DNA from: Bacteroides nordii WAL 11050 = JCM 12987
GTDB taxonomy: Bacteria > Bacteroidota > Bacteroidia > Bacteroidales > Bacteroidaceae
Assembly: GCA_000613465.1 (NCBI GenBank)
Contig: BAJA01000014.1
Coordinates: 1 to 64,000 of the forward strand
Direction of reading: 5' to 3'
DNA length: 64,000 nucleotides
In this document: one piece after another, positions 29,554 to 46,368 of the stretch
Layout of the letters: every line of letters begins with the position of its first letter
How positions within the stretch are numbered: position 1 is the first letter of the stretch
Translations under genes and position numbers: made by a program
The notes under the pieces: model-generated
Seen by the model: only the letters and a program-made list of their open reading frames with translations
Told to the model about the DNA's origin: nothing
The model's database searches: none

Positions 29554-31299
29554 ATGGAGAATCAGGAACTCATCAAGCAGGTAACTGAGAAAGCCGAAAA
29601 ATGGCTAACCCCGGCCTATGATGCCGAAACTCAGGCTGAAGTGAAACGTATGTTGGCAAACGAAGATAAAACTGAGTTGATAGAAGCATTCTATAAAGAC
29701 CTAGAATTTGGTACAGGCGGTTTACGCGGTATCATGGGTGTTGGTAGCAACCGTATGAATATCTATACAGTGGGTGCTGCTACGCAGGGACTTTCCAACT
29801 ATCTGAAGAAGAATTTCAAAGATCTCTCTCAGATTTCTGTAGTGGTAGGATATGATTGCCGTAACAACAGTGATCTTTTTGCCCGTATCTCTGCTGATAT
29901 ATTCTCTGGTAATGGTATTAAAGTGTATTTGTTTGAGGATATGCGCCCTACACCGGAAATGTCATTTGCCATTCGTCATCTTGGTTGTCAGAGTGGTATC
30001 ATCCTGACAGCTTCTCACAACCCGAAAGAATACAACGGTTATAAGGCGTACTGGGACGATGGTGCACAAGTATTGGCTCCGCATGACAAAGGGATTATTG
30101 ACGAAGTAAACAAGGTTACTTCTGCTGCCGATATTAATTTTAAGGGTAATCCTGATTTGATTCAGATTGTTGGTGAAGACATCGACAAACCTTATTTGGA
30201 TATGGTAAAGACTATCTCTATCGATCCGGAGGCTATTGCTCACCAGAAAGATATGAAGATTGTCTATACACCGATTCATGGTACGGGTATGAAACTTATT
30301 CCGCGTGCATTGAAGATGTGGGGATTTGAGAATGTATATACCGTTCCCGAACAGATGATTAAGGATGGTAACTTCCCGACTGTAGTTTCTCCGAATCCGG
30401 AAAATGCTGAAGCATTGACTATGGCTGTGAATCTGGCTAAAGAGATAGATGCCGACTTGGTGATGGCAAGTGATCCTGATGCCGACCGTGTAGGTATTGC
30501 CTGCAAAGACGATAAGGGTGAGTGGGTACTTATCAATGGTAACCAGACTTGTCTGATGTATCTGTATTACATCATCACTCAGTACAAGAAGTTGGGTAAG
30601 ATGACCGGCAAGGAGTTCGTTGTGAAGACCATCGTAACTACTGAACTTATCAAGAAGATTGCTGAAAAGAATAATATTGAAATGCTCGATTGCTACACCG
30701 GTTTCAAATGGATTGCCCGTGAAATTCGTCTGCGTGAGGGTGAAAAAGTATATATCGGTGGTGGAGAAGAAAGCTATGGTTTCCTTGCCGAAGATTTCGT
30801 TCGTGATAAAGATGCCGTTTCTGCTTGTTGTCTCATCTCTGAAATAGCTGCATGGGCAAAAGATAACGGTAAGTCATTGTATGAAATGCTGTTGGATATC
30901 TACGTAGAATACGGATTCTCTAAAGAAAAGGGTATCAGCGTAGTGAAGCCGGGTAAGAGCGGTGCCGAAGAGATCAAACAGATGATGGTAGACTTCCGCA
31001 ACAATCCTCCACGCGAATTAGCTGGTTCTAAAGTAATTCTTTGGAAGGACTTCCAGACTTTGAAGCAGATTGATGCTGACGGTCGTGTGACGAAGATTGA
31101 TATGCCGGATAAATCAAATGTTCTTCAGTATTTCACAGAAGATGGTGATAAGGTTTCTATCCGTCCGTCGGGAACAGAACCTAAGATTAAGTTCTATATC
31201 GAGGTGAAGGGTGAGATGGGCTGTCGTAACTGCTTTGCCAGTGCCGATGCTGCCGCTGACGAGAAGATCAAAGCTGTAATGAAATCATTAGGCATTTAG
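29554..31299 (+). CDS. phosphoglucomutase/phosphomannomutase family protein
   Basis: A 581-residue cytoplasmic alpha-D-phosphohexomutase that moves phosphate between C1 and C6 of a hexose, feeding glycolysis and nucleotide-sugar synthesis. Four classical parts are seen: the phosphoserine loop TASHNPKEYNGYKAYWDDGAQ (about 151-171), metal loop DPDADRVGIA (about 307-316), sugar loop GGGEESYGFL (about 405-414) and phosphate loop RPSGTEPKIKFY (about 545-556). The length fits the long PgcA-like branch. It is its own unit, ended by a REP-like element and a strong terminator. Confidence 0.93.
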   Translation: MENQELIKQVTEKAEKWLTPAYDAETQAEVKRMLANEDKTELIEAFYKDLEFGTGGLRGIMGVGSNRMNIYTVGAATQGLSNYLKKNFKDLSQISVVVGYDCRNNSDLFARISADIFSGNGIKVYLFEDMRPTPEMSFAIRHLGCQSGIILTASHNPKEYNGYKAYWDDGAQVLAPHDKGIIDEVNKVTSAADINFKGNPDLIQIVGEDIDKPYLDMVKTISIDPEAIAHQKDMKIVYTPIHGTGMKLIPRALKMWGFENVYTVPEQMIKDGNFPTVVSPNPENAEALTMAVNLAKEIDADLVMASDPDADRVGIACKDDKGEWVLINGNQTCLMYLYYIITQYKKLGKMTGKEFVVKTIVTTELIKKIAEKNNIEMLDCYTGFKWIAREIRLREGEKVYIGGGEESYGFLAEDFVRDKDAVSACCLISEIAAWAKDNGKSLYEMLLDIYVEYGFSKEKGISVVKPGKSGAEEIKQMMVDFRNNPPRELAGSKVILWKDFQTLKQIDADGRVTKIDMPDKSNVLQYFTEDGDKVSIRPSGTEPKIKFYIEVKGEMGCRNCFASADAAADEKIKAVMKSLGI

Positions 31300-31301
31300 T
31301 G

Positions 31302-31335
31302 GTGCTTCCCGCACGGGGAGATACGCCGAGCGATA
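31302..31335 (+). repeat. REP-like 34-bp palindromic element, copy 2
   Basis: GTGCTTCCCGCACGGGGAGA followed by TACGCCGAGCGATA, starting two bases after the mutase stop codon. Same fold as the other copies: GTGCTTCCC arm, GCAC loop, GGGGA arm. Confidence 0.75.
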
Positions 31336-31379
31336 ATAAAAAAGCGGCTGGTTTGTGATGAACCAGCCGCTTTTTTATT
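31335..31379 (+). terminator. perfect 19-bp terminator hairpin
   Basis: AATAAAAAAGCGGCTGGTT and its exact complement AACCAGCCGCTTTTTTATT flank a 7-base loop. A GC-rich core with a T-run makes it a strong intrinsic terminator for the phosphohexose mutase transcript. It also separates that unit from the capsule promoter. Confidence 0.88.
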
Positions 31380-31553
31380 ACTTCATGCCTTTCAAAGACA
31401 AATATTTATTGGTATCTGTTTTCAATGTGCCAGTATGGTAGAATTATGTTTGAGAGGAGAAGAGTTTAAATTAGATCATTACTTAGATATAAAGTAGAAA
31501 AATCTTAGATAAATGCTGATATGGTGGTAGTGCTTGAAATTTTGAATTGGAAA

Positions 31554-31787
31554 AGTGTTTCAATAAACGTTCGTTTAATGACACAAAGTTAAAACGTATA
31601 TCTGAAATGCCAAAATATTCTTATGATTATTTTTGAGGGTATTGAAAAATAGAGATGTAAATTTCTTATATTCAATATATTATCAGATTGATAAAATTGG
31701 TGGTTTAACCTATTATTCTATAATCGTTATCTGTTTGAAATCTTTAAAAAAAACATGTGTCATTAAACGAACGTTTATTGAAACACT
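31554..31787. promoter_or_regulatory. invertible promoter segment of the capsule locus
   Basis: A perfect 32-bp inverted repeat (31554-31585 and 31756-31787, starting AGTGTTTCAATAAACGTTCG) encloses 170 bases of AT-rich DNA. Each arm contains AAACGTTCGT, which fits the core reported for Mpi-class promoter inversions in Bacteroides (from memory). The segment lies just upstream of upxY, the usual place of a phase-variable capsule promoter. No recombinase gene is in the window, so inversion would be driven in trans. Confidence 0.9.
31584..31614 (-). promoter_or_regulatory. promoter inside the invertible segment, OFF orientation
   Basis: On the minus strand TTTG (31611-31614), a 19-base spacer and TAACTTTG (31584-31591) match the Bacteroides consensus fully. 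The -7 box abuts the left inverted repeat. In this copy it points left, away from the capsule genes. After inversion the -7 box would lie at 31750-31757 and transcription would start inside the right repeat, about 200 bases before upxY. Confidence 0.85.
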
Positions 31788-31970
31788 ATTTCTATTTAAA
31801 TGATTCGTTTACAATATTTTAAGTAATATAGTTATTTCATGTACCTCCTTCTGCGATAGTGGAGTGTTTTGAAATGATATGAATGCATTAAGATCTTCAT
31901 CAATATTCGCATTACATAATTTAGCCGGGAGGTATTTCACTCTTCTGGTGTCCCCAAAGAATATCCTTTT

Positions 31971-32513
31971 GTGAACGATAAAACAACTATTTGCTGGTAC
32001 GCTCTGCGTGTCACTTACGGCCGTGAGCTTACCTTGAAATCATATCTTGATAGCGAGGGTATCGAAAACTTTATCCCTATGCGTTATGAATTTATTTTGA
32101 AAAACGAACGCCGCGTACGTAAATTAGTTCCTGCAGTTCATAATCTTATATTTGTTTATTCTTCCCGTAACCGTATTGATGCTATGAAGGAGTTGCACGG
32201 TACAACGTTGCCTATTCGTTATATTATGAATCGTGAGTGTCATCGTCCCATTATCATTCCAGACTCTCAGATGCGCAGTTTTATTGCTATTTCAGGGAAT
32301 CACGATCAAGCTTTACTCTATCTCGATCCTTCTGAGCCGGCACTCCGTAAGGGAACCCGTGTACGTATCATCGGTGGCGTTTTCGCCGGTGTTGAAGGCG
32401 AATTTGTTCGTGTGAGGAATGACCGTCGCGTCGTTGTATCCATTGATGGAGTGATGGCCGTTGCCACTACTTTCATTCATCCTTCCCTTGTTGAACCTAT
32501 TATTGAAAAATAA
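31971..32513 (+). CDS. upxY: UpxY family NusG-like transcription antiterminator
   Basis: A 180-residue NusG paralogue that lets RNA polymerase read through its own long capsule operon. The NGN domain shows WYALRVTYGRELTLKSYLDSEGIENFIPMRYE (about 9-40), and a KOW motif is at RKGTRVRIIGGVFAGVEGEFVRV (about 124-146). It starts at GTG 31971, since no ATG is in frame after the preceding stop. A 31-codon open frame (31879-31974) ends on the overlapping TGA, which could couple translation. The leader also has TACCTCC (31842) complementary to GGAGGTA (31928). First gene of the capsule operon. Confidence 0.92.
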   Translation: MNDKTTICWYALRVTYGRELTLKSYLDSEGIENFIPMRYEFILKNERRVRKLVPAVHNLIFVYSSRNRIDAMKELHGTTLPIRYIMNRECHRPIIIPDSQMRSFIAISGNHDQALLYLDPSEPALRKGTRVRIIGGVFAGVEGEFVRVRNDRRVVVSIDGVMAVATTFIHPSLVEPIIEK

Positions 32514-32523
32514 TCATTGATAT

Positions 32524-33009
32524 ATGAATTCATTAGAATCTGAAGTTTCCGCCTTGTCTACCTTGGCGGACGAGTTGCTTTATCTCGGTATAGACGATAC
32601 TCCTATTTACAGCGATGATTTTACTCGCTTGAACCACGAGGTTTTTCAAAAAGCCAATGCCTTATATCACCAGCGCGGTAGTACCTTTGAAGAGGAAGCT
32701 TCGCTGTGTCTGGCGCTCTTGAAAGGATATAATGCTACGATTTACAATGATGGGGATAAGGAAGAGCGTATTCAAACAATTTTGAATCGTTGCTGGGAAG
32801 TACTTAAACACTTGTCTGCCTCATTGCTAAAGGTACAATTGCTAACGTATTGTTATGGGGAAGTGTTTGAAGAGGAGCTTATCCGAGAAGCATACATAAT
32901 AATTGAGAGCTGGAACGGTAAAGAGCTATCGGAAGAAGAACAGGGGATTATTGAATATTTGAAGAATCTGGAAGAATATCCGTATCCGAATTGGGAAGAA
33001 TGTAATTGA
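32524..33009 (+). CDS. upxZ: UpxZ family capsule transcription inhibitor
   Basis: A 161-residue acidic helical protein in the fixed second position of Bacteroides capsule loci, 10 bases after upxY. It starts MNSLESEVSALSTLADELLYLGID. UpxZ proteins block the UpxY proteins of other capsule loci, so that one capsule is made at a time. Family marks seen here: SDDFTRLNHEVFQKANALYHQRGSTFEEEASLCLALLKGYNATIYNDGDKEERIQ. No DNA-binding domain is seen. Confidence 0.9.
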   Translation: MNSLESEVSALSTLADELLYLGIDDTPIYSDDFTRLNHEVFQKANALYHQRGSTFEEEASLCLALLKGYNATIYNDGDKEERIQTILNRCWEVLKHLSASLLKVQLLTYCYGEVFEEELIREAYIIIESWNGKELSEEEQGIIEYLKNLEEYPYPNWEECN

Positions 33010-33076: not shown

Positions 33077-34045
33077 ATGAAGGTATTAGTGACGGGTGGA
33101 GCTGGTTTTATCGGTTCTAACCTTTGTGAGTATTTACTAAAGGAAGGGCACCAGGTAAGATGTCTTGATAATTTTATTACTGGAAAGGTTGAGAATTTAT
33201 TACCCTTAATGAAAAAATATCCTGATTCTTTCGAGTTATCTGTAGGAGATATACGTAATATAGAAGACTGTAGAAAGGCGGTGGATGGGATGGAATATGT
33301 TTTACATGAAGCGGCTTTAGGTTCTGTTCCACGTAGTATTAAAGATCCCATTACTACCAATGAAGTTAATATTGGAGGTTTTCTTAATATGATTGTAGTT
33401 TCGCGAGATGCTGGAATTAAACGTTTTGTTTTTGCTGCAAGTTCCTCTACTTATGGTGATAGTCAGTCACTTCCTAAAGTAGAAAATATAATTGGAAACC
33501 CTCTTTCTCCCTATGCAATTACTAAGTATGTAGATGAGCTTTATGCAGATGTTTTTGCACGTACCTATAATTTTGAATACATAGGATTGAGATATTTTAA
33601 TGTTTTTGGTAGACGTCAAGACCCATTTGGAGCATATGCAGCTGTTATTCCATTATTTGTAAAAAAGTTTATGAAACACGAAAGTCCTGTTATAAATGGA
33701 GATGGAGAATATAGCCGTGATTTTACATATATTGATAATGTAATACAAATGAATATGTTGGCATTGACAACTACTAACCCGGCAGCTGTTAATCAGATAT
33801 ACAATACGGCATTTGGAGAACGTACGACATTGAACCAATTGGTTAGTTATCTGAAAATGTATTTGAGTGAATTTGATCCGGAAATAAGCCAGGTAGAAAT
33901 AGCACATGGCCCTAATCGTCAGGGGGATATTCCCCATTCTTTGGCATCTATTGATAAAGCTAAAACTCTTTTAAATTATGATCCGCAATATTGCATGAAA
34001 GATGGATTAAAAGAGGCTGTAAAATGGTACTGGGAGAATATCTGA
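33077..34045 (+). CDS. UDP-N-acetylglucosamine 4-epimerase type SDR (TviC/WbpP-like)
   Basis: A 322-residue extended short-chain dehydrogenase. The NAD motif GGAGFIGSNLCEYLL is at about 7-21, the Ser/Thr of the catalytic triad in FAASSSTYGDSQ, and YAITKYVDE holds the Tyr-x-x-x-Lys pair. LRYFNVFGRRQDPFGAYAAVIP is typical of WbpP/TviC epimerases, which convert UDP-GlcNAc (or its uronic acid) to the GalNAc form. The next gene is the matching C6 dehydrogenase, as in Vi-antigen synthesis. AT-rich codon use marks the beginning of the capsule-specific part. Confidence 0.9.
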   Translation: MKVLVTGGAGFIGSNLCEYLLKEGHQVRCLDNFITGKVENLLPLMKKYPDSFELSVGDIRNIEDCRKAVDGMEYVLHEAALGSVPRSIKDPITTNEVNIGGFLNMIVVSRDAGIKRFVFAASSSTYGDSQSLPKVENIIGNPLSPYAITKYVDELYADVFARTYNFEYIGLRYFNVFGRRQDPFGAYAAVIPLFVKKFMKHESPVINGDGEYSRDFTYIDNVIQMNMLALTTTNPAAVNQIYNTAFGERTTLNQLVSYLKMYLSEFDPEISQVEIAHGPNRQGDIPHSLASIDKAKTLLNYDPQYCMKDGLKEAVKWYWENI

Positions 34046-34074
34046 TTTTATAATCATTAAATCGTAAAATATTT

Positions 34075-35340
34075 ATGGATACAATAAAAATTGCCGTAAT
34101 CGGATTAGGTTACGTCGGACTTCCTTTGGCTCGTCTGTTTTCAACAAAATATAAAACTGTTGGTTTTGATATGAATCAAGCACGTGTTACTGCTTTAATG
34201 GAGGGACATGATGCGACTTTAGAGGTAGCTGATGAGCTACTTCGATCTGCAATTGAAAATGGTTTTGTATGTACTTCTAACATTGAGGATATAAGAGATT
34301 GTAATTTTTATGTAGTTGCGGTTCCTACCCCTGTTGACGAAAATCACAATCCGGATTTAACACCTCTGTACAAAGCGAGTGAATCTGTTGGTAAGGTTAT
34401 TTCTGAAGGTGATATTGTGGTTTATGAGTCTACTGTCTATCCTGGTGTAACTGAAGATGAATGCATTCCGGTTGTTGAGAAGGTGTCTGGATTGAAATAT
34501 AATATCGATTTTTTTGCAGGATATTCGCCGGAACGTATTAATCCGGGAGATAAATTACACACTGTAGAAAAAATCAAGAAAGTAACATCGGGCTCTACTC
34601 CTGAGATTGCTCGTATAGTTGATGATGTATATGCATCGGTTATCACAGCCGGAACACATTCTGCACCTACTATAAAGGTTGCCGAAGCTGCTAAAGTGAT
34701 TGAAAATTCACAGCGTGACATCAATATTGCTTTCGTCAACGAATTATCCAAAATATTCACAAGAATGGGAATAGATACACAGGATGTCCTGGAGGCAGCT
34801 TCTACAAAATGGAATTTTTTACCATTCAAACCAGGATTGGTGGGCGGCCACTGTATTGGGGTGGACCCGTATTATTTAGCACAATGTGCTCAACGATATG
34901 GCTATAATCCTGAAATTATTCTTGCTGGGCGTAGAATGAATGATGGGATGGGCGAATATGTAGCTAATCAAGTCGTAAAACTTATGTTGAAAAGAGGTAT
35001 CCAAGTATTAAATTCCAATATACTTATTCTTGGTTTTACATTCAAAGAAAACTGCCCAGATGTAAGAAATACGAAAGTAATTGATATTTATCATGCACTA
35101 AAGGAGTATGGAGTGAATATATCCGTATACGATCCTTGGGCGAATCCGATGATTGTAGAGAAAGAATATAGTATTAAAACTACTAATGAGTTATTGAGTA
35201 GTAAATTTGATGCTGTTATTTTGGCAGTAGCACATGAAGATTTTGAAAATCTTGATATAAATCGTTTTGTAAATTCTTCTAGTGTTATATATGATGTGAA
35301 AGGAGTACTAAATTCTAAAATGGTGGCAGGTAGATTATAA
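34075..35340 (+). CDS. nucleotide-sugar dehydrogenase (TviB/WbpO-like)
   Basis: A 421-residue UDP-sugar 6-dehydrogenase that oxidises the C6 alcohol to a carboxylate in two steps. The NAD motif IAVIGLGYVGLPLA is at about 5-18, YESTVYPGVTEDECIPV follows, and the catalytic Cys lies in GLVGGHCIGVDPYYLA (about 258-273). FTFKENCPDVRNTKVIDIY is typical of the UDP-GlcNAc/GalNAc branch. With the TviC-like gene before it, the likely product is UDP-GalNAcA. It starts 29 bases after that gene. Confidence 0.92.
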   Translation: MDTIKIAVIGLGYVGLPLARLFSTKYKTVGFDMNQARVTALMEGHDATLEVADELLRSAIENGFVCTSNIEDIRDCNFYVVAVPTPVDENHNPDLTPLYKASESVGKVISEGDIVVYESTVYPGVTEDECIPVVEKVSGLKYNIDFFAGYSPERINPGDKLHTVEKIKKVTSGSTPEIARIVDDVYASVITAGTHSAPTIKVAEAAKVIENSQRDINIAFVNELSKIFTRMGIDTQDVLEAASTKWNFLPFKPGLVGGHCIGVDPYYLAQCAQRYGYNPEIILAGRRMNDGMGEYVANQVVKLMLKRGIQVLNSNILILGFTFKENCPDVRNTKVIDIYHALKEYGVNISVYDPWANPMIVEKEYSIKTTNELLSSKFDAVILAVAHEDFENLDINRFVNSSSVIYDVKGVLNSKMVAGRL

Positions 35341-35356
35341 ATAGGAGTTTGTTATT

Positions 35357-36453
35357 GTGAGAACTAAAATTTGTTTTGTAATTCCTGATCAATTTGGATA
35401 TGCAGCGGGATATTATCAATATGCTAAATATTTATCAGAGTATGGTTTTGATGTAACAGTTCTTTCTGTTGATAAAGGGTTACCAAGAATTGAGGAAATA
35501 CCAGACGTTACAATTGAATATCTATCAATAAATGAAAAATCTGTGTTTTCGAATACTATTTCATATATAAGAAAGTCAAAGCAGTATTTGAATACATTAG
35601 ATATCAATACTATTATTATTTTAAAGTATATTCCATTTATTTCAGTACTTCTTCTGAATCTGAGAAGAAAGAAAAGAGTGTTCTTAGATATTAGAACTGG
35701 TGCTGTAAATAAGTCGAGAGTAAAGTCTGTTTTATTAAATGCTCTGCTGACATTTGAAAGTTATTTTTTTAGTCATATTTATATTTTATCTTTAGAGTTG
35801 GCTCGGATGCTTCATTTAAATATGAAGAAAATTGTCTATCTACCATTAGGGGCAGATGTGTACTCGGTCCAGTCAAAAAGTTATGAACATGATTTCAATC
35901 TACTTTATGTTGGTACTTTTTAACTTCAGACGTATTTATGAAACCATTTACGGATTAAAAAAAGTTTTGTGACAAGTACGCTTCACGTCTAAAGATAACT
36001 TATACTATAATCGGATATGGAGATGAGGATGAAATCCGTAATATAAAAAATGCTATTAACACATGCCATTTGAATGATTATGTTAACTATGTAGGTCGTA
36101 AAACATATACGGAATTTTCTACTTATTTTGCTAAAGCCAATATTGGAATCGCATATATACCTATGGTGAAATATTATAATAACCAGCCTTCGACAAAAGT
36201 TTTTGAATATGCATTATCCGGACTTGTTTGCCTGGCTACGAATACAGATGCCAATAAACAACTTATATGCTCTAAGAATGGAGTACTGTGTGATGATAAC
36301 CCGGATGCTTTTTTTCTTGCGCTGGAGAAATTATATAGAGAAAGAAGTAGGTTTGTATTTACTGATATTACTCAGTCTATGAAACAATATTCGTGGAAGA
36401 ACATAGTGAGAGAGGTTATAATTCCTTCTTTAAAAGATAAGTCGATATGGTAA
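35357..36453 (+). pseudogene. GT-B glycosyltransferase (GT4-like), two frameshifts
   Basis: A capsule glycosyltransferase of about 365 residues if read through, starting with GTG near 35357 (RTKICFVIPDQFGYAAGYYQYAKYLSEYG). Break 1 is at TTTTT near 35919-35923: removing one T gives LLYVGTFNFRRIYETIYG. Break 2 is at AAAAAAA near 35957-35964: removing one A gives GLKKFCDKYASRLKITYTIIGYGDEDE. The C-terminal half is intact: VNYVGRKTYTEFSTYFAKANIGIAYIPM and KVFEYALSGLVCLAT hold the donor-binding loop. Two homopolymer gains within 45 bases suggest sequence error. Linkage unknown. It overlaps the flippase gene by 7 bases. Confidence 0.75.
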
Positions 36454-37712
36454 AAAATAAAGTAATCGGTAACATCGCATATCTTGTTTCTTCGAGTTTA
36501 ATAACTAAAATCGTGCTTTTTTTATTTTATATCTATGTTGCACGAATATTAGGTCCGAATGGTTATGGATATATTTCTTCTTCTACAGAATATGTAGGTC
36601 TTTTTTTGATTTTTGCAACATTTGGTCTTCAAATGGCAATTGTAAGGGAGGCTTCACGAAATTTGGATAATCAAATAGAGCTTTTTAACAAGATTCTTCC
36701 TGCCAGATTTGTTTTTAGTATTATTTCTTTCGTCTTTTGCATTACTATTTGTTATTTTTTATATTGGGACACAGTTAATTTTCCTTTGATAATGATTCTT
36801 GCAATAATGGTATTATTGCAACCATTGGAAGATCACTGTTATTCTTTCTTTTGGGTTAAACAAGAATTAAAGTTTGTTGCATTTGGCGAGTTAGTGAAAA
36901 TTGTAGTTTATATTGGAAGCTTTATTTTATTAAATGTTTTGTTTGGTTTACAACTAACTAATCTGGTCATATCTACTTTGTTAGGCTTTTTATGTTCCAT
37001 ATTATTTAAAATGAAATGGCTGAAGAGGCGTTACGGGTATCAGTATCAATTTATAATTGATATACCGTATATTAGAAAAGTATTTTATATATCTTTCTAT
37101 TTCGGGATTGTATCTATTATATATGTATATTCTTTGAAAATTGATATTCAGATGTTAAATGTGATTTGTGGCTCTACTGAAGTAGGATACTATAGTGTTG
37201 CCTGGCAAATGGTCCAGATCGGTATTGTTTTTATTCAATCGTTATCTACCTCACTATTTCCTAATTCTGTTCAGAAAATACATTTGAGAAGTTTTCGGAT
37301 GAAGCTATTGAAGTATATTACTTATCTTACCTTCTTTGTAATTTTATGTGCTTTATTGGCAACATTTCTTTCTGATTCTATTATAAAATTGTTATATGGA
37401 ACAGCTTATGGTAATTCTGCTTTGTTATTGAATCTTTTGGTATGGTATCTGCCAATGCGTTTATTTGCAGTATGGGGCTCTCAGATATTAGAAAGTGGAG
37501 CGTGGTATAAAAAAAGAGTTCTGATATATATTACTCCATTGGCTATTAACATTGTTTTAAATTATATTTATCTTCCTCTTTATGGTGCCCAGGCTGCTGC
37601 TGTTATTGCATTAATATCTAATTTTATTTTGGTGTCTTTAATAACTATATTTGCTTTTATTTATTCTAAAAAATATTATTCCAATGAGGACTGTAAAATG
37701 GTTGAAGTCTGA
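36447..37712 (+). CDS. oligosaccharide flippase (Wzx-like)
   Basis: A 421-residue polytopic inner-membrane protein with about 12 helices, starting MVKNKVIGNIAYLVSSSLITKIVLFLFYIYVARILGPNGYGY. That N-terminal pattern, with ARxLGPxxYG, is typical of the MATE-like polysaccharide transport family. It moves lipid-linked repeat units across the inner membrane for Wzy polymerisation. Very AT-rich. It overlaps the glycosyltransferase before it by 7 bases and the next gene by 29. Confidence 0.88.
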   Translation: MVKNKVIGNIAYLVSSSLITKIVLFLFYIYVARILGPNGYGYISSSTEYVGLFLIFATFGLQMAIVREASRNLDNQIELFNKILPARFVFSIISFVFCITICYFLYWDTVNFPLIMILAIMVLLQPLEDHCYSFFWVKQELKFVAFGELVKIVVYIGSFILLNVLFGLQLTNLVISTLLGFLCSILFKMKWLKRRYGYQYQFIIDIPYIRKVFYISFYFGIVSIIYVYSLKIDIQMLNVICGSTEVGYYSVAWQMVQIGIVFIQSLSTSLFPNSVQKIHLRSFRMKLLKYITYLTFFVILCALLATFLSDSIIKLLYGTAYGNSALLLNLLVWYLPMRLFAVWGSQILESGAWYKKRVLIYITPLAINIVLNYIYLPLYGAQAAAVIALISNFILVSLITIFAFIYSKKYYSNEDCKMVEV

Positions 37713-38935
37713 AATCAAAAAGTATCCTTGTTTGGTACACTTTATAAATCTGATACTATCGTTTATTAAATATTTACCTCATATTAGTTTCAAGCATGTG
37801 GATAGCAAGTACGAACTGATCAGATATGAGGATGGAAAAAATGAAACATTTTTTTGGATATTATGATAAATCTCCTAAAAATGAAACAGGTGAATATATT
37901 CTTTATTACTCAACTTCTCATTCTACAAAAAAGAAACCAAACCCTAACTGCCCGATAAATCTAATTGTTTTTGATTGTGTTAATAATGTAATAGTGAAGC
38001 GTTTTCTTGTATATGCATACAATTGGCAGCAAGGCTCGAAGGTACAATGGATAGGAAAGTATAGATTTATATTTAATAATTATGATTTGGTTAAAAAAAG
38101 ATATTATTCAGAATTGTATGATGTACAAATGAATATAAGTACTTCGATAGATTATCCTGTTTATGATGTCTGTAATAATAAAGCTTTATCTCTAAATTTT
38201 AGTCGTTTGGCTCTTTTGCGTCCAGATTATGGGTATTTTAATGTTGCCATGAGTAAGGAGGAATTGAAAGATATAAGTAATGATGGTGTTTATATAGTAG
38301 ATTTAGAGTGCAATTCCTGTATCTTGCTATTATCTATAGAGAGATTGTTGCAAACTTTTCCAATTCGTTATGATATTGAAGAAGTAACTGCACATAAGGT
38401 AAATCATATTATGTTTTCTCCAAGCGGAGAAAGTTTTATTTTTCTTCATCGTTTTTTTATTAAAGGTAAAAAGATAGACCGACTTTTTCTTTATGAATTC
38501 GAATCACAGAAAATAAGTCTTTTAAGTGATAATGATATGGTGAGTCATTATAGTTGGATTGATAATAAACAGATCATTGTTTATATGAGACGTTTTGATA
38601 TCGGAGATATGTATTATGTAATAGATTTATATCCCGTTAAAATTACTCCTATACAAAACGTAGAACTTCAGTCATTCGGTGATGGACATCCTACTGTAAA
38701 GAATGGCCTTTTGGTAACTGATTCATATCCTGATAATTCATGTACTCAATATTTATTATTATATGATTTTTCAATGAATAAAAGTTTGTGTTTAGGTACT
38801 TTTCATCATTCGCTATTGTATAGTCGAGAGATGAGATGTGATTTACATCCTAAGTGGACGTTTAATGGACAAGAAATTTTTTTTGATTCGATTTATAATA
38901 GGGGCAGACACTTGTATTCTTTAAAGTTATCCTAA
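37684..38935 (+). pseudogene. capsule-locus protein of unknown function (YYDKSP type), frameshifted
   Basis: A soluble protein of about 416 residues if read through, starting MRTVKWLKSEIKKYPCLVHF at ATG 37684 within the end of the flippase gene. The frame breaks at the TTTTTTT run near 37850-37856; removing one T gives DGKNETFFGYYDKSPKNETGEY. The rest has repeated strand-like blocks (VQWIGKYRFIFNN, HIMFSPSGESFIFLHRFF, HYSWIDNKQIIVYMRR, HPKWTFNGQEIFFDSIYNRG), recalling a WD40/TolB-type beta-propeller. I do not know a proven function; its place suggests a role in modifying or assembling the polymer. Confidence 0.6.
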
Positions 38936-40003
38936 GTGGTTTATCTGTTTTTTTTGTTCTATTCTCAGGTTTACTTTTATTTTTTAGGAAAATATTCTAC
39001 TAAATTATATAAGTATTATCTCCTCTTAACACCTATTATATTACTCTGGGTAATAATTATAGGTGGACAATATAATGTGGGTACAGACTATTTCTCTTAT
39101 ATGAAATTATTTGTAGGTAGAGAAAGTTTATCTAGATATATTGATAATGGTGAATTGTTATTCGTTTTTTTAATTCGATTTTGTCATAATATTGGAATAT
39201 ACGGGCAAGGAATTCTTTTAGTGATTGTCTTTATTGAGGTTATATTGTATTTTTATATATCACAATTGATTGTTTCCAATAAAAATATTTGGGTTTTATT
39301 TGTTGTATATATTTGTTTCTCAACAATATTTAATAATCAAATGAATGGTATACGACAGTATTTTGCTATGTATTTTTTTACATTATCCGTATTGAAAATG
39401 CTAAATCGTAATTATGTTGTCATGAGTCTTTTGATGCTTGCTTCAGTACTTATTCATAAGTCTGCTTTATTGTTATCCTTATTTTTATTATTGTTTTTTT
39501 TCTTGAAGAATATCCGAACTTCTAAAATTTTATATTTGATCATTATTATTGGTGTGATTATAAGTGCTGTTCCGCTTTATAATAGTTTTATTGGATTTAT
39601 TATGGAATATTCGTTTTATGATGGCTACATAGAAAATGGTTATATACAGGAAGTAGGAATCAATGATAAACTTATAAAATATGCTTTTGTTCCTGTATTT
39701 ATGTATTCAATAAGAAAAGTAAAATTTTTAGATTTTCCTTGTTTTCATCGATATTTATTTATCATTGGTATTATTTCTTTTTCAGTTAGATTAATGGCTT
39801 TAAATTTATCTCTTACGAATCGGTTTGGCATGTATTTTGAATTTTTGATGTGCATACCATTAGTTTATTTAATTATTGCGTTGAAACGCCAATCTACTTT
39901 TAAATTTCTGTCATTATTACTTTTTATATATATGGTATATGCATTAAAAGTAACTTTTTTTGCTAAAGGGGAATATTTGTATGATTCTTATTTTCTCAAT
40001 TGA
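38936..40003 (+). CDS. EpsG/Wzy-like polysaccharide polymerase
   Basis: A 355-residue membrane protein with about ten helices, starting at GTG 38936 directly after the previous stop. After the first helices comes GGQYNVGTDYFSYMKLF (about 42-58), which is the EpsG-family pattern: a periplasmic G-x-D-Y segment. NNQMNGIRQYFAMYFFTLSV (about 138-157) is the second family block, with an Arg in front of a helix. It would join repeat units at the outer face of the inner membrane. Start codon uncertain. Strongly AT-rich. Confidence 0.8.
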   Translation: MVYLFFLFYSQVYFYFLGKYSTKLYKYYLLLTPIILLWVIIIGGQYNVGTDYFSYMKLFVGRESLSRYIDNGELLFVFLIRFCHNIGIYGQGILLVIVFIEVILYFYISQLIVSNKNIWVLFVVYICFSTIFNNQMNGIRQYFAMYFFTLSVLKMLNRNYVVMSLLMLASVLIHKSALLLSLFLLLFFFLKNIRTSKILYLIIIIGVIISAVPLYNSFIGFIMEYSFYDGYIENGYIQEVGINDKLIKYAFVPVFMYSIRKVKFLDFPCFHRYLFIIGIISFSVRLMALNLSLTNRFGMYFEFLMCIPLVYLIIALKRQSTFKFLSLLLFIYMVYALKVTFFAKGEYLYDSYFLN

Positions 40004-40018
40004 TACACATAGATTTTT

Positions 40019-40717
40019 ATGAATGTCGATATTCTTATTTGTACATTTAATGAAGGTATAAATCGCGTAAAAGAGGTATTACTTGATTATCGAAAAGATA
40101 TTCATTACGTTGTTTCTCATCAAATTACGAATAGCGATTATGATTACATCCCTTTGGAGTTGAAGCGCAAGGATGTTGCTGTTTTTCAAATAAAATCTAA
40201 GGGACTTTCTTTAAACCGTAATGCTTGTTTAAATCATGCCAAAGGTGATATTTGTTTTATTGCTGACGATGATGTCAAATACACGTATCAATATATTGAT
40301 ACTGTAAAAGGTATATTCCTCAAAGATTCACGTTTGGATGTTTGCATAGGTAAAATAAAAACAGATACAAATGTAGATTATAAAGCATACCCTTCTTATA
40401 GTCGAACAATAAAGAAATGGAATGTTACTAAGATCAGTAGTATTGAAATAATTGTGAAAAGATCTAGTATTTTGCAATTCAATGTCATTTTTGACATAAG
40501 GTTTGGGCTTGGAAGTTCTTTGTTTGCTTATGGAGGTGAAGAAGCTGTGTTTATAATGGATTGTTTGAATGTTGGGATGAATGTAAGATACTATCCTGTT
40601 TATGTATCTCAACATCCTTTCGAGTCTTCAGGGAAATTGGTACGACATGACGATGAGTTTATTCAATATCATGGCGCATTGATAAAACGCTATATGGACA
40701 GTTTTCTCTATTATTAA
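40019..40717 (+). CDS. GT-A glycosyltransferase (GT2-like)
   Basis: A 232-residue protein starting MNVDILICTFNEGINRVKEVLLD. The nucleotide-sugar fold is shown by ILICTFNE near the start and by GDICFIADDDVKYTY (about 76-90), whose ADDD is the metal-binding DxD region. GLGSSLFAYGGEEAVFIMDCLNVG (about 164-187) has the ED-like acceptor base motif (GGEEAVF). No membrane helices. It adds one sugar of the capsule repeat; linkage unknown. It lies 15 bases after the polymerase. Confidence 0.83.
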   Translation: MNVDILICTFNEGINRVKEVLLDYRKDIHYVVSHQITNSDYDYIPLELKRKDVAVFQIKSKGLSLNRNACLNHAKGDICFIADDDVKYTYQYIDTVKGIFLKDSRLDVCIGKIKTDTNVDYKAYPSYSRTIKKWNVTKISSIEIIVKRSSILQFNVIFDIRFGLGSSLFAYGGEEAVFIMDCLNVGMNVRYYPVYVSQHPFESSGKLVRHDDEFIQYHGALIKRYMDSFLYY

Positions 40718-40843
40718 TGGGAGTAGTCTATTTAAAGAACTACTGGAAATATATATCACCATTTTTATTTGCAAAGAATTTTTTTATAGGTTGTAATAAA
40801 ATTTAGTAATTTGTTTAAAAATAATACATAAATTAATTTGATT

Positions 40844-42049
40844 ATGAAAGCATGTTTTATGGGCCTTGGTTATATAGGTCTTCCTACAGCCATCATTGCA
40901 GCCAAACATGGTATTCAAGTTATCGGGGTTGACATTAATCCTGTTGTTGTAGATATGACTAATCAAGGTCAATTACACATAATAGAGCCCGGTATGCAAG
41001 AGATACTTCAAGAAGTAGTTGGTAACGGATTATTAAAAGCATCTACAGTGCCAGAGGTTAGTGATGCCTATTTTATAGTAGTCCCCACTCCTTTTAAAGG
41101 GAATCATGAACCGGATATTTCTTTTGTCGAAGCTGCAACACGTGCTATAATTCCATTGTTAAAGGAAGGAGATTTGTATGTTATTGAGTCTACTTCTCCT
41201 ATTGGTACAACAAACACGATGGCTCATTTAATATTTGCTCTTCGTCCAGAGTTAAAAGATAAAATTTATATTGCTTACTGCCCTGAACGTGTATTGCCAG
41301 GAAATGTTATTTATGAATTGGTTCATAATGATCGTGTAATTGGAGGAATAGATGAGGCTTCTACTGATAAAGCTATTGCTTTTTATAACAAATTTGTACA
41401 AGGGACACTTCATCGGACCCATTGTAAAACTGCAGAGATGTGTAAATTGACAGAAAATTCTTCACGCGATGTACAGATTGCATTTGCAAATGAGCTTTCT
41501 TTAATTTGTGATAAAGCTGGTATTAATGTTTGGGAGTTGATTTCTTTGGCAAATAAACATCCTCGTGTGAATATTCTACAGCCGGGCTGTGGTGTTGGTG
41601 GTCATTGTATTGCAGTGGATCCCTATTTTATAACAACAGATTTTCCGATAGAATCCCAGTTAATAGCGAAAGCACGTGAGATAAATAATTATAAGGCATT
41701 TTGGTGTGCGGAGAAAGTTGAAAATGCAATGCTGAGATTTGAATTGGAACATCATCGTAGACCTACTATTGCGATGATGGGACTATCTTTTAAACCAGAT
41801 ATTGATGATTTACGTGAAGCTCCGGCAAAGTATATTACTACAAAGGTTATGCAAAGTTGTAATAATGCTGATTTATTAATAGTGGAGCCTAATGTCGTTG
41901 AACATAAAGTTTTTAAGTTAACTGATTATAAGAAAGCTTACAAGAAAGCAGATATTGTAGTTTTTTTAGTGGCTCATTCAGTGTTTAAGTCTTTACCATA
42001 TGATAATAAAAAGGTAATTCTAGATTTTTGTGGAGTTTATAAAAAGTAG
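40844..42049 (+). CDS. wecC: UDP-N-acetyl-D-mannosaminuronate dehydrogenase
   Basis: A 401-residue UDP-sugar dehydrogenase from ATG 40844 (MKACFMGLGYIGLPTAIIAAKHG). NAD motif at residues 5-20, VESTSPIGTT-type IESTSPIGTTNTMAHLI, CPERVLPGN, and catalytic Cys in GCGVGGHCIAVDPYFI (about 249-264). LSFKPDIDDLREAPA is typical of the ManNAc branch. It oxidises UDP-ManNAc to UDP-ManNAcA. The next gene, wecB, makes its substrate, so the order is product enzyme first. Confidence 0.93.
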   Translation: MKACFMGLGYIGLPTAIIAAKHGIQVIGVDINPVVVDMTNQGQLHIIEPGMQEILQEVVGNGLLKASTVPEVSDAYFIVVPTPFKGNHEPDISFVEAATRAIIPLLKEGDLYVIESTSPIGTTNTMAHLIFALRPELKDKIYIAYCPERVLPGNVIYELVHNDRVIGGIDEASTDKAIAFYNKFVQGTLHRTHCKTAEMCKLTENSSRDVQIAFANELSLICDKAGINVWELISLANKHPRVNILQPGCGVGGHCIAVDPYFITTDFPIESQLIAKAREINNYKAFWCAEKVENAMLRFELEHHRRPTIAMMGLSFKPDIDDLREAPAKYITTKVMQSCNNADLLIVEPNVVEHKVFKLTDYKKAYKKADIVVFLVAHSVFKSLPYDNKKVILDFCGVYKK

Positions 42050-42083
42050 GATTTTTTTATAATAAACTTATATCGTTATACGT

Positions 42084-43229
42084 ATGAAAAAAGTAATGTT
42101 GGTTTTTGGCACTCGCCCAGAAGCTATAAAAATGGCTCCTTTAGTAAAAGAATTCCAAAAAGATTTGGTGGCATTTCAAACAATTGTATGTGTTACTGGT
42201 CAACATCGAGAGATGCTTGACCAAGTATTACATCTCTTTAATATAACTCCTGATTATGATTTGAATATAATGAAATCAGGGCAAGATTTGTATGATGTGA
42301 CTTCACGTGTACTTATTGGAATGCGTAAGGTTTTGAAAGAAGTCCTTCCGGATATTGTGTTGGTACATGGTGATACGACAACTTCTACAGCAGCAGCTCT
42401 TGCGGCTTTTTATCAACAAATACCAGTCGGGCATGTGGAAGCAGGATTACGTACATTTAATATTTATAGTCCTTGGCCTGAAGAAATGAATCGTCAGATA
42501 ACGGGGCGCATTGCGACTTATCATTTTTCTCCTACGCAGCTTAGTCGGGAGAATTTGTTGAAAGAGGGGATAACAGATGAAAAGATAATTGTTACAGGTA
42601 ATACTGTAATTGATGCTCTCCATGTGGTAGTGGATAGAATAAAAAAAGATAAACTCTTGGAGAGAGAACTAAGTGAAGCATTATTATTGTCCGGTTACGA
42701 TGTAAATCGATTGCATAACGGTAAGCGACTGGTATTAATAACAGGACATCGTCGTGAAAACTTTGGTGATGGATTTGTTGCAATTTGTAAGGCCATAAAA
42801 GCTCTAACTGAAAAATATCCAGAGGTAGATTTTATATATCCAATGCACTTAAATCCCAATGTTCGTAAACCTATTTATGAAGTTTTTGGTGAGAGTCAGC
42901 TTTCTAATATCTGTTTTGTAGAACCTTTGGAATATCTATCATTTGTTTACTTGATGGAAAAGTCAGCCATTGTGTTGACTGATAGTGGAGGTATTCAAGA
43001 GGAGGCTCCCGGATTGGGTAAACCTGTGCTGGTAATGCGTGATACAACAGAACGACCGGAAGCATTGGAAGCTGGAACAGTGAAACTGGTAGGTAAAGAT
43101 TATAATAAAATAGTTAGTGAGGTTTCTGTTTTGTTGGATAACCAAACTTATTATGATAAAATGAGTAAAGCTGTCAATCCTTATGGAGATGGTCAAGCTT
43201 CTGGTCGAATAGTTGACGTACTTAGATGA
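42084..43229 (+). CDS. wecB: UDP-N-acetylglucosamine 2-epimerase (non-hydrolysing)
   Basis: A 381-residue GT-B-fold epimerase that forms UDP-ManNAc from UDP-GlcNAc. Seen: MLVFGTRPEAIKMAPLV (about 5-21), VHGDTTTSTAAALAAFYQQIPVGHVEAGLRTFN (about 92-124), ITGHRRENFG (about 216-225), and DSGGIQEEAPGLGKPVLVMRDTTERPEALEAGT (about 292-324). Length and blocks fit the bacterial type. It pairs with wecC just upstream, and its stop codon overlaps the next gene by 4 bases. Confidence 0.95.
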   Translation: MKKVMLVFGTRPEAIKMAPLVKEFQKDLVAFQTIVCVTGQHREMLDQVLHLFNITPDYDLNIMKSGQDLYDVTSRVLIGMRKVLKEVLPDIVLVHGDTTTSTAAALAAFYQQIPVGHVEAGLRTFNIYSPWPEEMNRQITGRIATYHFSPTQLSRENLLKEGITDEKIIVTGNTVIDALHVVVDRIKKDKLLERELSEALLLSGYDVNRLHNGKRLVLITGHRRENFGDGFVAICKAIKALTEKYPEVDFIYPMHLNPNVRKPIYEVFGESQLSNICFVEPLEYLSFVYLMEKSAIVLTDSGGIQEEAPGLGKPVLVMRDTTERPEALEAGTVKLVGKDYNKIVSEVSVLLDNQTYYDKMSKAVNPYGDGQASGRIVDVLR

Positions 43230-44419
43230 AAATTGCGATTTTAACTCAATATTATAAGCCGGAAATGGGAGCACCTCAAAATCGGCTTTATGAAATGGCT
43301 GTCGGACTTAAAAAATGTGGTGCAGACATTACTATTATTACTGGTATGCCAAATTATCCTACAGGAAAAATATTTAAAGAATATAGAGGTAAATGGTTTT
43401 GTAAAGAGAGTTTGGATGAGATTGATGTATTTAGATTTTGGTTGTTTGCATCTAATGTAAAAACGTGTTTTGCCTCGTGTTTTAAGTATGCTATCTTTTT
43501 TCTTTTTCAGTTTTGTTTTCATTGAAATACGTTTCGAAAAAAAAAGATTCGATTTTATAATTGTTGAAAGTCCTCCTTTAACATTAGGGGTGAGTGGATA
43601 TTTCTTATCGAAGACTTGTAAGTCTAAAATGATAATGAATATATCTGATTTATGGCCTTTATCTGCAAGAGAGTTAGGGGTCTTGACTGATGGAGTAATT
43701 TATCGTATACTTGAAAAGTTAGAATGTTTTTTATATAAGAAATCAGTAGCATGTATGGGGCAATCTCAAGAAATAGTCAGCTATGTTTCTCAACATGGTG
43801 CATCTCAAGCGTATCTTTTTAGAAATGGGGTTACGCCAGAACGTTTTCAGAATATCTCAAATAAGAAAAAGACGAATGGTAATCTTATTATTGTATATGC
43901 CGGACTTTTGGGGGTTGCTCAAGGAATTTTAGAAATTTGTCAAAAAATTGATTTTAAATCGTTAGGAGCTGAATTTCATATTTATGGTGCTGGAGGTGAG
44001 CAATATTTAATTGAAGAGTTTTTGATGACTAATTCAGAGAGAGGCATTTTTTTCATGGTAGAGTTTCGCGTGATGAGATACCAGGTTTATTAAAACAGGC
44101 TGATGTTACTTTAATACCTTTAGTGAAAAATATATTCGGAGCTGTACCTTCCAAAATTTATGAATCTATGGCTGCAGGAGTTCCTATCTTATTTGCTGGT
44201 GAAGGAGAAGGGCAGCGTATAATTGAAGAAAATTGTTTAGGTTGGGTTTCTCGTTCAAGAGACTATGAGAAATTAATTGAAAATATAAAATTAATTCGTT
44301 CAAATGATATTGATATGTTACGAAAAAGAGAAAATTGCAAAAATGCTGCAGAAAATTTGTTTAATAGACCTAGACAGATTAAAGCACTATTTCAATACCT
44401 CTCTCAATTAAATACTTAA
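43226..44419 (+). pseudogene. GT4 glycosyltransferase (WbuB-like), two frameshifts
   Basis: A GT-B glycosyltransferase of about 397 residues if joined, starting MKIAILTQYYKPEMGAPQNRLYEMAVGL, the donor-independent start of WbuB-like enzymes. Break 1 is at TTTT 43468-43471 (one T too many; corrected VKTCLPRVLSML). Break 2 is at TTTTTTT near 44047-44054 (one T missing; corrected RGIFFHGRVSRDEIPGLLKQADVTLIPL). Between and after the breaks the chain is complete: FDFIIVESPPLTLGVSGY, MIMNISDLWPLSARELG, and VPSKIYESMAAGVPILFAGEGEG with the donor-site Glu. WbuB-type enzymes often add amino sugars such as FucNAc. Homopolymer changes again suggest sequence error. Confidence 0.8.
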
Positions 44420-44525
44420 TATTTGGTTATTTTACAGCATATTCGTTTGCTCAATATTGTTTTTCTATTAAGAGAAATTACTTATTATAGAGCATCTAAC
44501 TTTATTTTATCATAATAACTCATTT

Positions 44526-45749
44526 ATGAAAATACCCTTTTCACCACCTTATATTGACGAGGCGGTTATCAACGAAGTCGTTGATTCGTTACGTTCCGGT
44601 TGGATCACATCCGGTCCGAAAGTAAAGGCTTTGGAGGAAGAAATAAAATCTTTTTCGGGAGCAAAAGAAGTACTTTGTGTCAATTCCTGGACATCAGGAG
44701 CTATTATGATGTTGCGTTGGCTGGGAGTGAAGGAGGGCGATGAAGTGATCGTTCCTGCCTATACTTATAGTGCAACGGCGTTGGCGGTGCTTCATGCCGG
44801 AGCTAAACCTGTAATGGTGGATTCTGGAACGGATTTTAATATTTCGGTGGAGGCTGTTCGTAAAGCTATTACTTCTAAAACAAAGGCAATTATTCCGGTA
44901 GATATTGCCGGCTTTCCTTGCGATTATGAAAAGATCATGGCACTGGTGCAGGAATCTGAAATGATAAAATTGTTCCGTGCGGAATCTTCCGTGCAAGAAA
45001 AATTGGGACGTATCTTGGTGATGAATGATGCTGCCCACTCTTTGGGAGCACGCTACAGTAGTCATCAGCGTACCGGTTGTGAAACTGATATAGCTATCTT
45101 TTCACTCCATGCCGTGAAAAATGTGACTACTGCTGAAGGTGGAGCCATTTGTTTGAACTTGCCCAATCCGTTTGATAATGCAGAATTATATAAGGAACTA
45201 CGGATGATGAGCCTAAACTGCCAGACTAAGGATGCTTTTTCAAAATCAAAAGCCGGAGGATGGCGTTATGATATTGTTGGTTTCGGAATGAAAATCAATA
45301 TGGCTGATGTGAATGCTGCCATCGGACTGGCGCAAATACGGGAATATTCGGAGTTACTAAAAGAGAGAAAACGGGTCTTCGATACTTACAATAATGCTTT
45401 TTCGGCTTGTGACTGGGCTATTGTTCCACCTTCTGTGGATGGAGAAAAAGAAAGTTCTTATCATATTTATGCTTTACGCGTTAAAGGTTTTACCGAAGAA
45501 CAACGCGACCGGATGATTGATGAGATCGCTAAAAGTGAAGTGGCTGTGAATGTACACTTTATACCGATGCCGATGTTGTCGTTCTTTAAATCGATGGGAT
45601 ATGATATTAAGGATTATCCACAGGCTTATCAGAACTTTAAGAGTGAGATATCGTTGCCGATATATCCCCAATTGGATAGTGAAAAATTAAAATTCATTAT
45701 TGATACTGTAAAGGCGGCCTATACGACCGTGATTGCAAAAAACAGATAG
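44526..45749 (+). CDS. DegT/DnrJ/EryC1/StrS family sugar aminotransferase
   Basis: A 407-residue PLP enzyme that aminates a keto-sugar nucleotide. It starts MKIPFSPPYIDEAVINEVVDSLRSGWITSGPKV, the usual opening. The PLP-binding Lys lies in IFSLHAVKNVTTAEGGAI (about 196-213), and NDAAHSLGARY holds the cofactor Asp. C-terminal YHIYALRVKG and NVHFIPMPML complete the pattern. Codon use changes here from AT-rich to typical Bacteroides, so this gene and the next belong to the more conserved capsule end. It overlaps the sugar transferase by 17 bases. Confidence 0.93.
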   Translation: MKIPFSPPYIDEAVINEVVDSLRSGWITSGPKVKALEEEIKSFSGAKEVLCVNSWTSGAIMMLRWLGVKEGDEVIVPAYTYSATALAVLHAGAKPVMVDSGTDFNISVEAVRKAITSKTKAIIPVDIAGFPCDYEKIMALVQESEMIKLFRAESSVQEKLGRILVMNDAAHSLGARYSSHQRTGCETDIAIFSLHAVKNVTTAEGGAICLNLPNPFDNAELYKELRMMSLNCQTKDAFSKSKAGGWRYDIVGFGMKINMADVNAAIGLAQIREYSELLKERKRVFDTYNNAFSACDWAIVPPSVDGEKESSYHIYALRVKGFTEEQRDRMIDEIAKSEVAVNVHFIPMPMLSFFKSMGYDIKDYPQAYQNFKSEISLPIYPQLDSEKLKFIIDTVKAAYTTVIAKNR

Positions 45750-46368
45750 TATATTTACAAACACTAAACAGATAAGCTTCTTGATTCGTTTTTTTGATAT
45801 CGTTTTTTCCCTTTTGGGAATTTTATTACTTTCTCCTGTCTTTCTTCTTCTTTATATAGCCATTTGCCTCGAAAGTAAAGGAGGCGGTTTCTATAAACAG
45901 CTCCGTGTGGGACAATACGGGCGGGATTTTTATGTCTATAAATTCCGTTCAATGCGTATGGGAGCTGATAAGAAGGGGTTGATAACGGTAGGGGGGAGAG
46001 ATCCCAGAATAACCCGTACCGGATACTTTATTCGGAAGTATAAATTGGATGAATTGCCTCAATTGTTTAATGTGCTGAAAGGTGATATGAGTTTGGTGGG
46101 ACCACGTCCTGAGGTTCGTAAATATGTGGATTTATATTCCGATGAACAGAAGAAGGTATTGAGTGTACGTCCGGGAATTACGGATTATGCTTCTATTGAA
46201 TATGTAGATGAAAATACGATTCTTGGAGGGGCTTCAGATCCCGACAAAGCATATATAGAACAGATTATGCCCGATAAAATACGGTATAATATGAAATATA
46301 TATGTAATCGTTCGGTGAAGGAGTATTTTAAAATTATATTTCAGACATTTTGGAGCATCATACGTTAA
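45733..46368 (+). CDS. initiating sugar-phosphate transferase (WcaJ/PglC-type)
   Basis: A 211-residue monotopic membrane enzyme that puts the first sugar phosphate on undecaprenyl phosphate. One membrane helix (RFFDIVFSLLGILLLSPVFLLLYIAI, about 19-44) precedes FYKQLRVGQYGRDFYVYKFRSM (about 53-74), the conserved block with the catalytic Asp-Glu region KYKLDELPQLFNVLKGDMSLVGPRPE further on. It starts at TTG 45733: a stop codon directly precedes it in frame, so no earlier start exists. It overlaps the aminotransferase by 17 bases; such pairs are common at the end of Bacteroides capsule loci. Last gene of the locus. Confidence 0.92.
   Translation: MQKTDSIFTNTKQISFLIRFFDIVFSLLGILLLSPVFLLLYIAICLESKGGGFYKQLRVGQYGRDFYVYKFRSMRMGADKKGLITVGGRDPRITRTGYFIRKYKLDELPQLFNVLKGDMSLVGPRPEVRKYVDLYSDEQKKVLSVRPGITDYASIEYVDENTILGGASDPDKAYIEQIMPDKIRYNMKYICNRSVKEYFKIIFQTFWSIIR

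What the first reader, a model, noticed from the sequence alone, without database searches (positions are those of the whole stretch)
31554..31787. Phase-variable capsule promoter, captured in the OFF orientation
A perfect 32-bp inverted repeat encloses 170 bases directly upstream of upxY. The only full TTTG-N19-TAnnTTTG promoter inside (31584-31614) points left, away from the capsule genes, and its -7 box abuts the repeat. Inversion would place it facing upxY about 200 bases upstream. Each arm holds AAACGTTCGT, which fits the Mpi-class core as I remember it. No recombinase is encoded nearby, so a global invertase elsewhere is implied. The genome copy therefore carries this 15-kb locus in a silent state.
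Basis: partly seen in the sequence, partly recalled or inferred. Interest (0 to 1): 0.75.

Follow-up and report, generated by a model that had tools for sequence, protein, structure and literature searches.

The report
Flippable capsule-gene promoter, switched off
A short DNA segment carrying a promoter sits between two mirror-image repeats in front of a gut Bacteroides capsule operon and, in this assembly, points away from it; this is a further example of a well-known on/off switch for bacterial surface sugars.

Summary
A perfect 32-bp inverted repeat (31554-31585 / 31756-31787) encloses 170 bp, and its only exact TTTG-N19-TAnnTTTG promoter (31584-31614) points away from upxY (31971-32513). 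The reading holds: an Mpi-class invertible capsule promoter, assembled OFF. Support: (1) the genome encodes an Mpi invertase (298.5 bits, cut-off 272), head-to-head with a tyrosine recombinase as described for B. fragilis; (2) it holds four such elements; (3) of 158 genomes of the genus, 22 have the paired core and 21 of these have Mpi over cut-off; (4) a B. salyersiae capsule locus has the same element facing upxY, and its inner segment aligns with this one as reverse complement, not directly; (5) in 2 of 16 comparisons among three B. fragilis-group genomes the segment is inverted between collinear flanks; (6) core and spacing match elements whose inversion was seen in B. intestinalis. Not shown: inversion of this copy, its RNA start, or silence of the locus; 'OFF' is an assembly state. 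It is a new instance of a known system, so interest is low. Side observations: a CTGYGATAG leader motif, and two possible glycosyltransferase genes split near homopolymer runs.

The parts
31554..31585 (+). left inverted-repeat arm (likely recombination site), with core AAACGTTCGT at 31565-31574 and GTTCGTTTAA at 31569-31578
31586..31755 (.). invertible segment, 170 bp
   Evidence: aligns to the B. salyersiae L022 segment as reverse complement, not directly
31584..31614 (-). Bacteroides-type promoter TTTG-N19-TAACTTTG, pointing away from upxY (OFF)
   Evidence: the -7 consensus TAnnTTTG is stated in PMC4747536 (passage); the -33 box is recalled
31756..31787 (-). right inverted-repeat arm, exact reverse complement of the left arm; in the ON state RNA would start in it (inferred from B. 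intestinalis)
   Evidence: PMC8375218 passages
31788..31970 (+). leader between the repeat and upxY, with CTGCGATAG at 31851-31859 and GGTGTCCCCAAAGAATATCC just before the start codon
   Evidence: a covarying hairpin was not supported
31971..32513 (+). upxY, transcription antiterminator, 180 aa, GTG start
   Evidence: NF033644 176.7 bits, cut-off 100
32524..33009 (+). upxZ, antagonist of UpxY antiterminators
   Evidence: PF06603 160.3 bits, cut-off 21.2
33077..46368 (+). polysaccharide biosynthesis genes: sugar epimerase-like, two nucleotide-sugar dehydrogenases, flippase-like, EpsG, glycosyltransferase(s), UDP-GlcNAc 2-epimerase, DegT aminotransferase, initiating sugar transferase; several ORFs without a family match
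31334..31380 (.). 20-bp perfect stem (7-nt loop) with A and T runs at its ends, after the upstream mutase-like gene; likely two-way terminator
   Evidence: repeat I2; the terminator role is inferred, and the consensus scan of 31290-33100 did not list it

Best explanation
The 234-bp unit is an Mpi-type invertible capsule promoter. The Mpi serine recombinase, encoded on another contig, pairs the two arms and flips the segment. In the assembled orientation RNA polymerase starts leftward, towards the likely terminator after the mutase-like gene, and the capsule operon gets no transcript from this promoter. In the other orientation the -7 box abuts the right arm, RNA starts inside that arm, and a leader of about 200 nt is made before upxY; UpxY then keeps polymerase running through the operon while UpxZ restrains other capsule loci. 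Shown here: the anatomy, the Mpi gene, and opposite orientations of related elements. Inferred: flipping of this copy, the start site, the stop of leftward transcription, the antitermination step.
For: Perfect arms and core. Mpi-family protein at C55:13657-14253, 202 aa, 298.5 bits against a cut-off of 272, with a divergent tyrosine recombinase gene 250 bp away, as described for B. fragilis in PMC4747536 (passages). Four paired-core elements in the genome, 0 for the reversed control pattern, all four with an exact N19 promoter abutting or near the left arm. 21 of 22 genomes with the paired core have Mpi over cut-off, against 29 of 136 without it; Fisher p 1.6e-11, not corrected for relatedness. 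B. salyersiae segment homologous when inverted: Z 6.7, against -1.6 directly. Of 14 distinct related upxY loci with core repeat and exact promoter, 5 face upxY and 9 face away. L124 is inverted relative to L122 and L123 between collinear flanks. 184 bp between GTTCGTTTAA copies, against 183-186 bp in B. intestinalis, where reads gave both orientations and RNA started in the proximal repeat (PMC8375218, passages).
Against: No reads or RNA for this genome, so inversion of this copy is not observed. The B. salyersiae locus shares only the upxY-side flank; its left flank is unrelated, and the local score of its inner segment is modest (26 inverted, 14 direct). The better-conserved B. salyersiae counterpart of another element of this genome (C83), with both flanks homologous, has the same orientation (115 direct, 17 inverted). 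Of 16 B. fragilis-group pairs, 14 have the same orientation and 2 are inverted, both involving L124. One genome with the paired core has no Mpi match (G088, 60% complete), one of the 21 has only a partial Mpi match (G134), and 29 genomes have Mpi without this exact pattern.
Confidence: 0.94

Rival explanations
1. A relic: a former invertible promoter that is now locked in the OFF orientation.
For: Only the OFF state is seen in the assembly.
Against: The arms are identical over 32 bp; the B. salyersiae arms differ from them at two positions and are themselves perfect over 36 bp, so both arms changed in step. The promoter is exact and the mpi frame is open over 202 aa.
Confidence: 0.04
2. The segment inverts, but by another recombinase (the second serine recombinase on C100 or one of the tyrosine recombinases).
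For: The genome has a second serine recombinase (80 bits to the Mpi model, cut-off 272) and 24 tyrosine recombinase matches.
Against: The arm core is the one ascribed to Mpi (PMC8375218, passage); the paired core occurs with Mpi over cut-off in 21 of 22 genomes.
Confidence: 0.05
3. upxY is also driven in the assembled orientation by another promoter, so the flip matters less than it seems.
For: A 1-mismatch Bacteroides-type site at 31420-31452 points right, outside the repeat. An E. coli-type match at 31688-31716 (10 of 12) points right inside the segment as assembled.
Against: Such 1-mismatch sites are expected 0.47 times in this stretch and at least one appears in 36% of 2000 shuffles. E. 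coli-type matches are frequent here (12 found, 6.8 expected), and that Bacteroides does not use this consensus is recalled.
Confidence: 0.06

Closest known systems
Invertible capsule promoters PVR7-12 of Bacteroides intestinalis APC919/174 (PMC8375218, passages)
   Same: GTTCGTTTAA repeat, 184 bp between copies (183-186 there), promoter inside, before a capsule operon led by upxY and upxZ (for B. intestinalis: PMC12118408 passages), Mpi homologue in the genome
   Different: Only the 10-bp repeat is given as completely conserved there; the perfect arms are 32 bp here. No read or RNA data here
Mpi-controlled capsule promoters of Bacteroides fragilis (PMC4747536 and PMC12632263 passages; the original 2003 paper is not held)
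   Same: Mpi-family invertase beside a divergent tyrosine recombinase gene; ARACGTTCGT core; several capsule loci with UpxY and UpxZ
   Different: Other capsule genes; control by Mpi not tested here
Capsule switches of B. xylanisolvens, P. distasonis and B. thetaiotaomicron with tyrosine-type invertases or integrases (PMC12118408 passages)
   Same: Invertible promoter before a capsule operon led by a upxY or NusG-like gene
   Different: Palindromic GTTAC-GTAAC type repeats (GCTAC in P. distasonis), segments of 280-345 bp where given, recombinase gene preceding the locus; none of these here

Membership tests
Mpi-type invertible capsule promoter | Inverted repeats with core ARACGTTCGT | tested here: met
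   AAACGTTCGT in both arms; consensus read in PMC8375218 (passage)
Mpi-type invertible capsule promoter | About 183-186 bp between GTTCGTTTAA copies (B. intestinalis) | tested here: met
   31569-31578 and 31763-31772, 184 bp between (published spacing)
Mpi-type invertible capsule promoter | Bacteroides promoter inside the segment | tested here: met
   31584-31614, abutting the left arm
Mpi-type invertible capsule promoter | Upstream of a capsule operon led by upxY and upxZ | tested here: met
   NF033644 and PF06603 over cut-off
Mpi-type invertible capsule promoter | Mpi-family serine invertase in the genome | tested here: met
   NF009949 298.5 bits, cut-off 272; divergent tyrosine recombinase gene
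Mpi-type invertible capsule promoter | Both orientations seen for the same sequence | tested here: inconclusive
   Homologues in opposite orientation, others in the same; no reads of this genome
Mpi-type invertible capsule promoter | Inversion depends on Mpi | not testable with these tools
   Needs an mpi deletion; co-occurrence only
Mpi-type invertible capsule promoter | RNA starts inside the proximal repeat in the ON state (B. intestinalis) | not testable with these tools
   No RNA data; position of the -7 box after inversion would fit
Tyrosine-recombinase capsule switch | GTTAC-GTAAC type repeat and nearby recombinase gene | tested here: not met
   Arm sequence; no recombinase match on contig C105

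The most novel reading that the evidence does not exclude
The locus carries a second layer of switching beneath the promoter flip: two possible glycosyltransferase genes are split near 7-base homopolymer runs (35345-36453 and 43226-44419), so slipped-strand changes could alter which sugar chain is built once the promoter turns ON.
Probability: 0.08. Interest if true: 0.4.

Novelty: new member of a known kind. Interest (0 to 1): 0.2.

Why it matters
It adds one genome and one capsule locus to a known surface-switching system that affects how gut Bacteroides meet phages (B. intestinalis, PMC8375218). It also shows that a reference assembly freezes one state of each switch: the four paired-core elements of this genome all have their promoter pointing left in the contig, which is away from upxY in the two whose contig reaches upxY.

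Tried and rejected
Leader hairpin around CTGYGATAG: exchanging 3' flanks among loci gave no support for covariation (z -0.26, 179 of 500 permutations at or below the observed mean for the 12 contexts followed by the GGTGTCCC motif; z -0.94, 83 of 500, for the 14 others). The motif occurs in 23 distinct contexts among the fetched loci, 12 of them followed by the GGTGTCCC motif, and once in the 64-kb window, but it is missing from part of the leaders: of 19 looked at, 8 have it. I recall a 2024 paper by Saba and colleagues on UpxY and transcribed DNA, cited in PMC12632263; it is not held, so I claim nothing from it.

Rfam at E up to 1: 12 matches, all below their gathering scores, 11 of them on the terminator hairpin region.

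Similarity of the inner 170 bp: 16 related segments compared; only the own paralogue C32 (same orientation, Z 11.3) and B. salyersiae (inverted, Z 6.7) stand out, the other 14 lie between Z -2.1 and 3.0 in both orientations. In one search the pairs L057/L117, L057/L118, L058/L117, L056/L061, L059/L116 and L059/L118 had low inner scores or no pair of homologous flanks and were not interpreted.

State of the other upxY loci: no exact overlaps of at least 12 bases between the contig ends tested, so the orientation of C32 and C101 towards upxY is unknown; the contigs end 140 and 133 bp right of the repeat.

Mpi counts: nine of the 21 genomes showed a stop inside their over-cut-off matches. In eight of the nine the frame is simply 196-197 aa long, with the stop at its natural end; in G134 the match is partial and no such frame was found in the stretch.

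Rows dropped: of 25 named loci (L019-L043), 10 had a core repeat and 9 of these an exact promoter. Of 29 unnamed loci (L061-L089, a few of which matched only part of the query), 18 had a core repeat and 11 an exact promoter; 6 of the 11 (L061, L065, L071, L078, L079, L080) were taken as copies of named loci by equal contig length and arms. That leaves 14 distinct loci.

Papers looked at and not used further: PMC10939037 and PMC8748976 (passages), PMC12484125 (passages).

Full report
What is there. The perfect 32-bp inverted repeat is at 31554-31585 and 31756-31787 with 170 bp between. The exact promoter TTTG-N19-TAACTTTG is on the minus strand at 31584-31614 and its -7 box ends in the left arm. 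It is the only exact match of this form (N19-N21) in 31300-31990, and 82 of 20000 shuffled segments contain one. Upstream lie a phosphohexomutase-like gene (29554-31299; no NCBIfam model over cut-off) and a strong hairpin at 31334-31380. Downstream are upxY and upxZ and an operon of polysaccharide genes that reaches the initiating sugar transferase at 46368.

The recombinase. No Resolvase or Phage_integrase match lies on the window's contig. Elsewhere in the genome, C55:13657-14253 encodes a 202-aa protein that passes the NCBIfam cut-off for 'master DNA invertase Mpi' (298.5 bits, cut-off 272). A tyrosine recombinase gene starts 250 bp away on the other strand. PMC4747536 (passages) describes mpi of B. 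fragilis as head-to-head with a tyrosine recombinase gene, so the arrangement matches. The second serine recombinase (C100) scores only 80 bits.

Other elements in the genome. The pattern ACGTTCGT-N170-200-ACGAACGT occurs four times (C32, C83, C101 and the window on C105), with none for the reversed control. All four carry an exact N19 promoter pointing left in the contig. For C105 and C83 upxY lies to the right, so both are OFF. C32 and C101 end 140 and 133 bp right of the repeat and their state towards upxY is not known. Twelve UpxY matches were found, 11 over cut-off. One, at C105:110956, has an exact promoter facing it and no inverted repeat in the 1.5 kb before it, so it looks fixed. C28 starts inside what looks like a right arm.

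Relatives. Of 14 distinct upxY loci with core repeat and exact promoter, 5 have it facing upxY (L019, L022, L025, L034, L081) and 9 facing away (L020, L021, L024, L030, L033, L062, L063, L064, L076). The B. salyersiae DSM 18765 locus L022 has 36-bp perfect arms, the same 170-bp gap and the promoter facing upxY. Its inner segment aligns to the window's as reverse complement (60% identity, Z 6.7) and not directly (49%, Z -1.6). Its upxY-side flank is homologous; its other flank is not. The C83 element of this genome has a B. salyersiae counterpart with both flanks homologous, and that one has the same orientation. Among three B. fragilis-group genomes (G017, G018, G023; G018 and G023 were matched to B. 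fragilis S82 and Q1F2 by equal contig lengths), six element groups were compared in 16 pairs: 14 pairs have the same orientation, 2 are inverted with collinear flanks, both involving L124.

Co-occurrence. Of 158 genomes of the genus, 22 have the exact paired core and 50 have an Mpi match over cut-off. The overlap is 21; the exception, G088, is 60% complete. In G134 the Mpi match is partial. Fisher p is 1.6e-11; the genomes are related, so this p is too small.

Literature. PMC8375218 (passages) reports in B. intestinalis 183-186-bp invertible promoters flanked by GTTCGTTTAA before capsule loci, read pairs for both orientations, and approximate RNA starts inside the proximal repeat. The window has 184 bp between its two GTTCGTTTAA copies. 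PMC12632263 and PMC12118408 (passages) summarise the UpxY antiterminator and UpxZ cross-inhibitor layers. PMC12118408 also says that B. fragilis repeats share a GTTAC-GTAAC element, unlike those of B. intestinalis; B. fragilis has several invertase systems (PMC4747536), and the window's arms are of the B. intestinalis and Mpi kind. The original Mpi paper is not held.

Mechanism. Shown: anatomy, invertase gene, opposite orientations of relatives. Inferred: Mpi flips this segment; OFF transcription ends at the upstream hairpin; ON transcription starts in the right arm and gives a leader of about 200 nt. The leader holds CTGCGATAG at 31851-31859. The motif occurs in 23 distinct contexts among the fetched loci but in only 8 of 19 leaders looked at, and a permutation test did not support a covarying hairpin.

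Limits. No reads or RNA of this genome were available, so neither flipping nor silence of this copy is shown. A right-pointing one-mismatch promoter-like site at 31420-31452 is within chance, and an E. coli-type match at 31688-31716 points right inside the segment as assembled.

Verdict. This is a new member of a known kind.

Noticed in passing
window 35345-36453 and 43226-44419: Two possible glycosyltransferase genes are split over two or three frames near 7-base A or T runs (35957-35963, 44047-44053). Only one fragment of each has a Pfam glycosyltransferase match, and both matches are below cut-off. Assembly error, pseudogenes or slipped-strand variation.
   Followed up: partly
window 46811-47698: A 295-aa protein matches pyruvoyl-dependent histidine decarboxylase (PF02329, 298.1 bits, cut-off 25), to my mind an unexpected neighbour at the end of a capsule locus.
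   Followed up: partly
window 31851-31859: CTGYGATAG leader motif 120 bp before upxY, found in 23 distinct contexts among fetched loci and in 8 of 19 leaders looked at; a covarying hairpin was not supported.
   Followed up: yes
L046 1-40 (start of contig C28): A contig of this genome starts inside a right-arm-like sequence before another upxY, which suggests that the assembly broke at a further invertible element.
   Followed up: no
L047 1290-1320 (C105:110745-110775): Another upxY on the same contig has an exact promoter facing it and no inverted repeat in the 1.5 kb before it, so it looks like a fixed-promoter surface locus.
   Followed up: no
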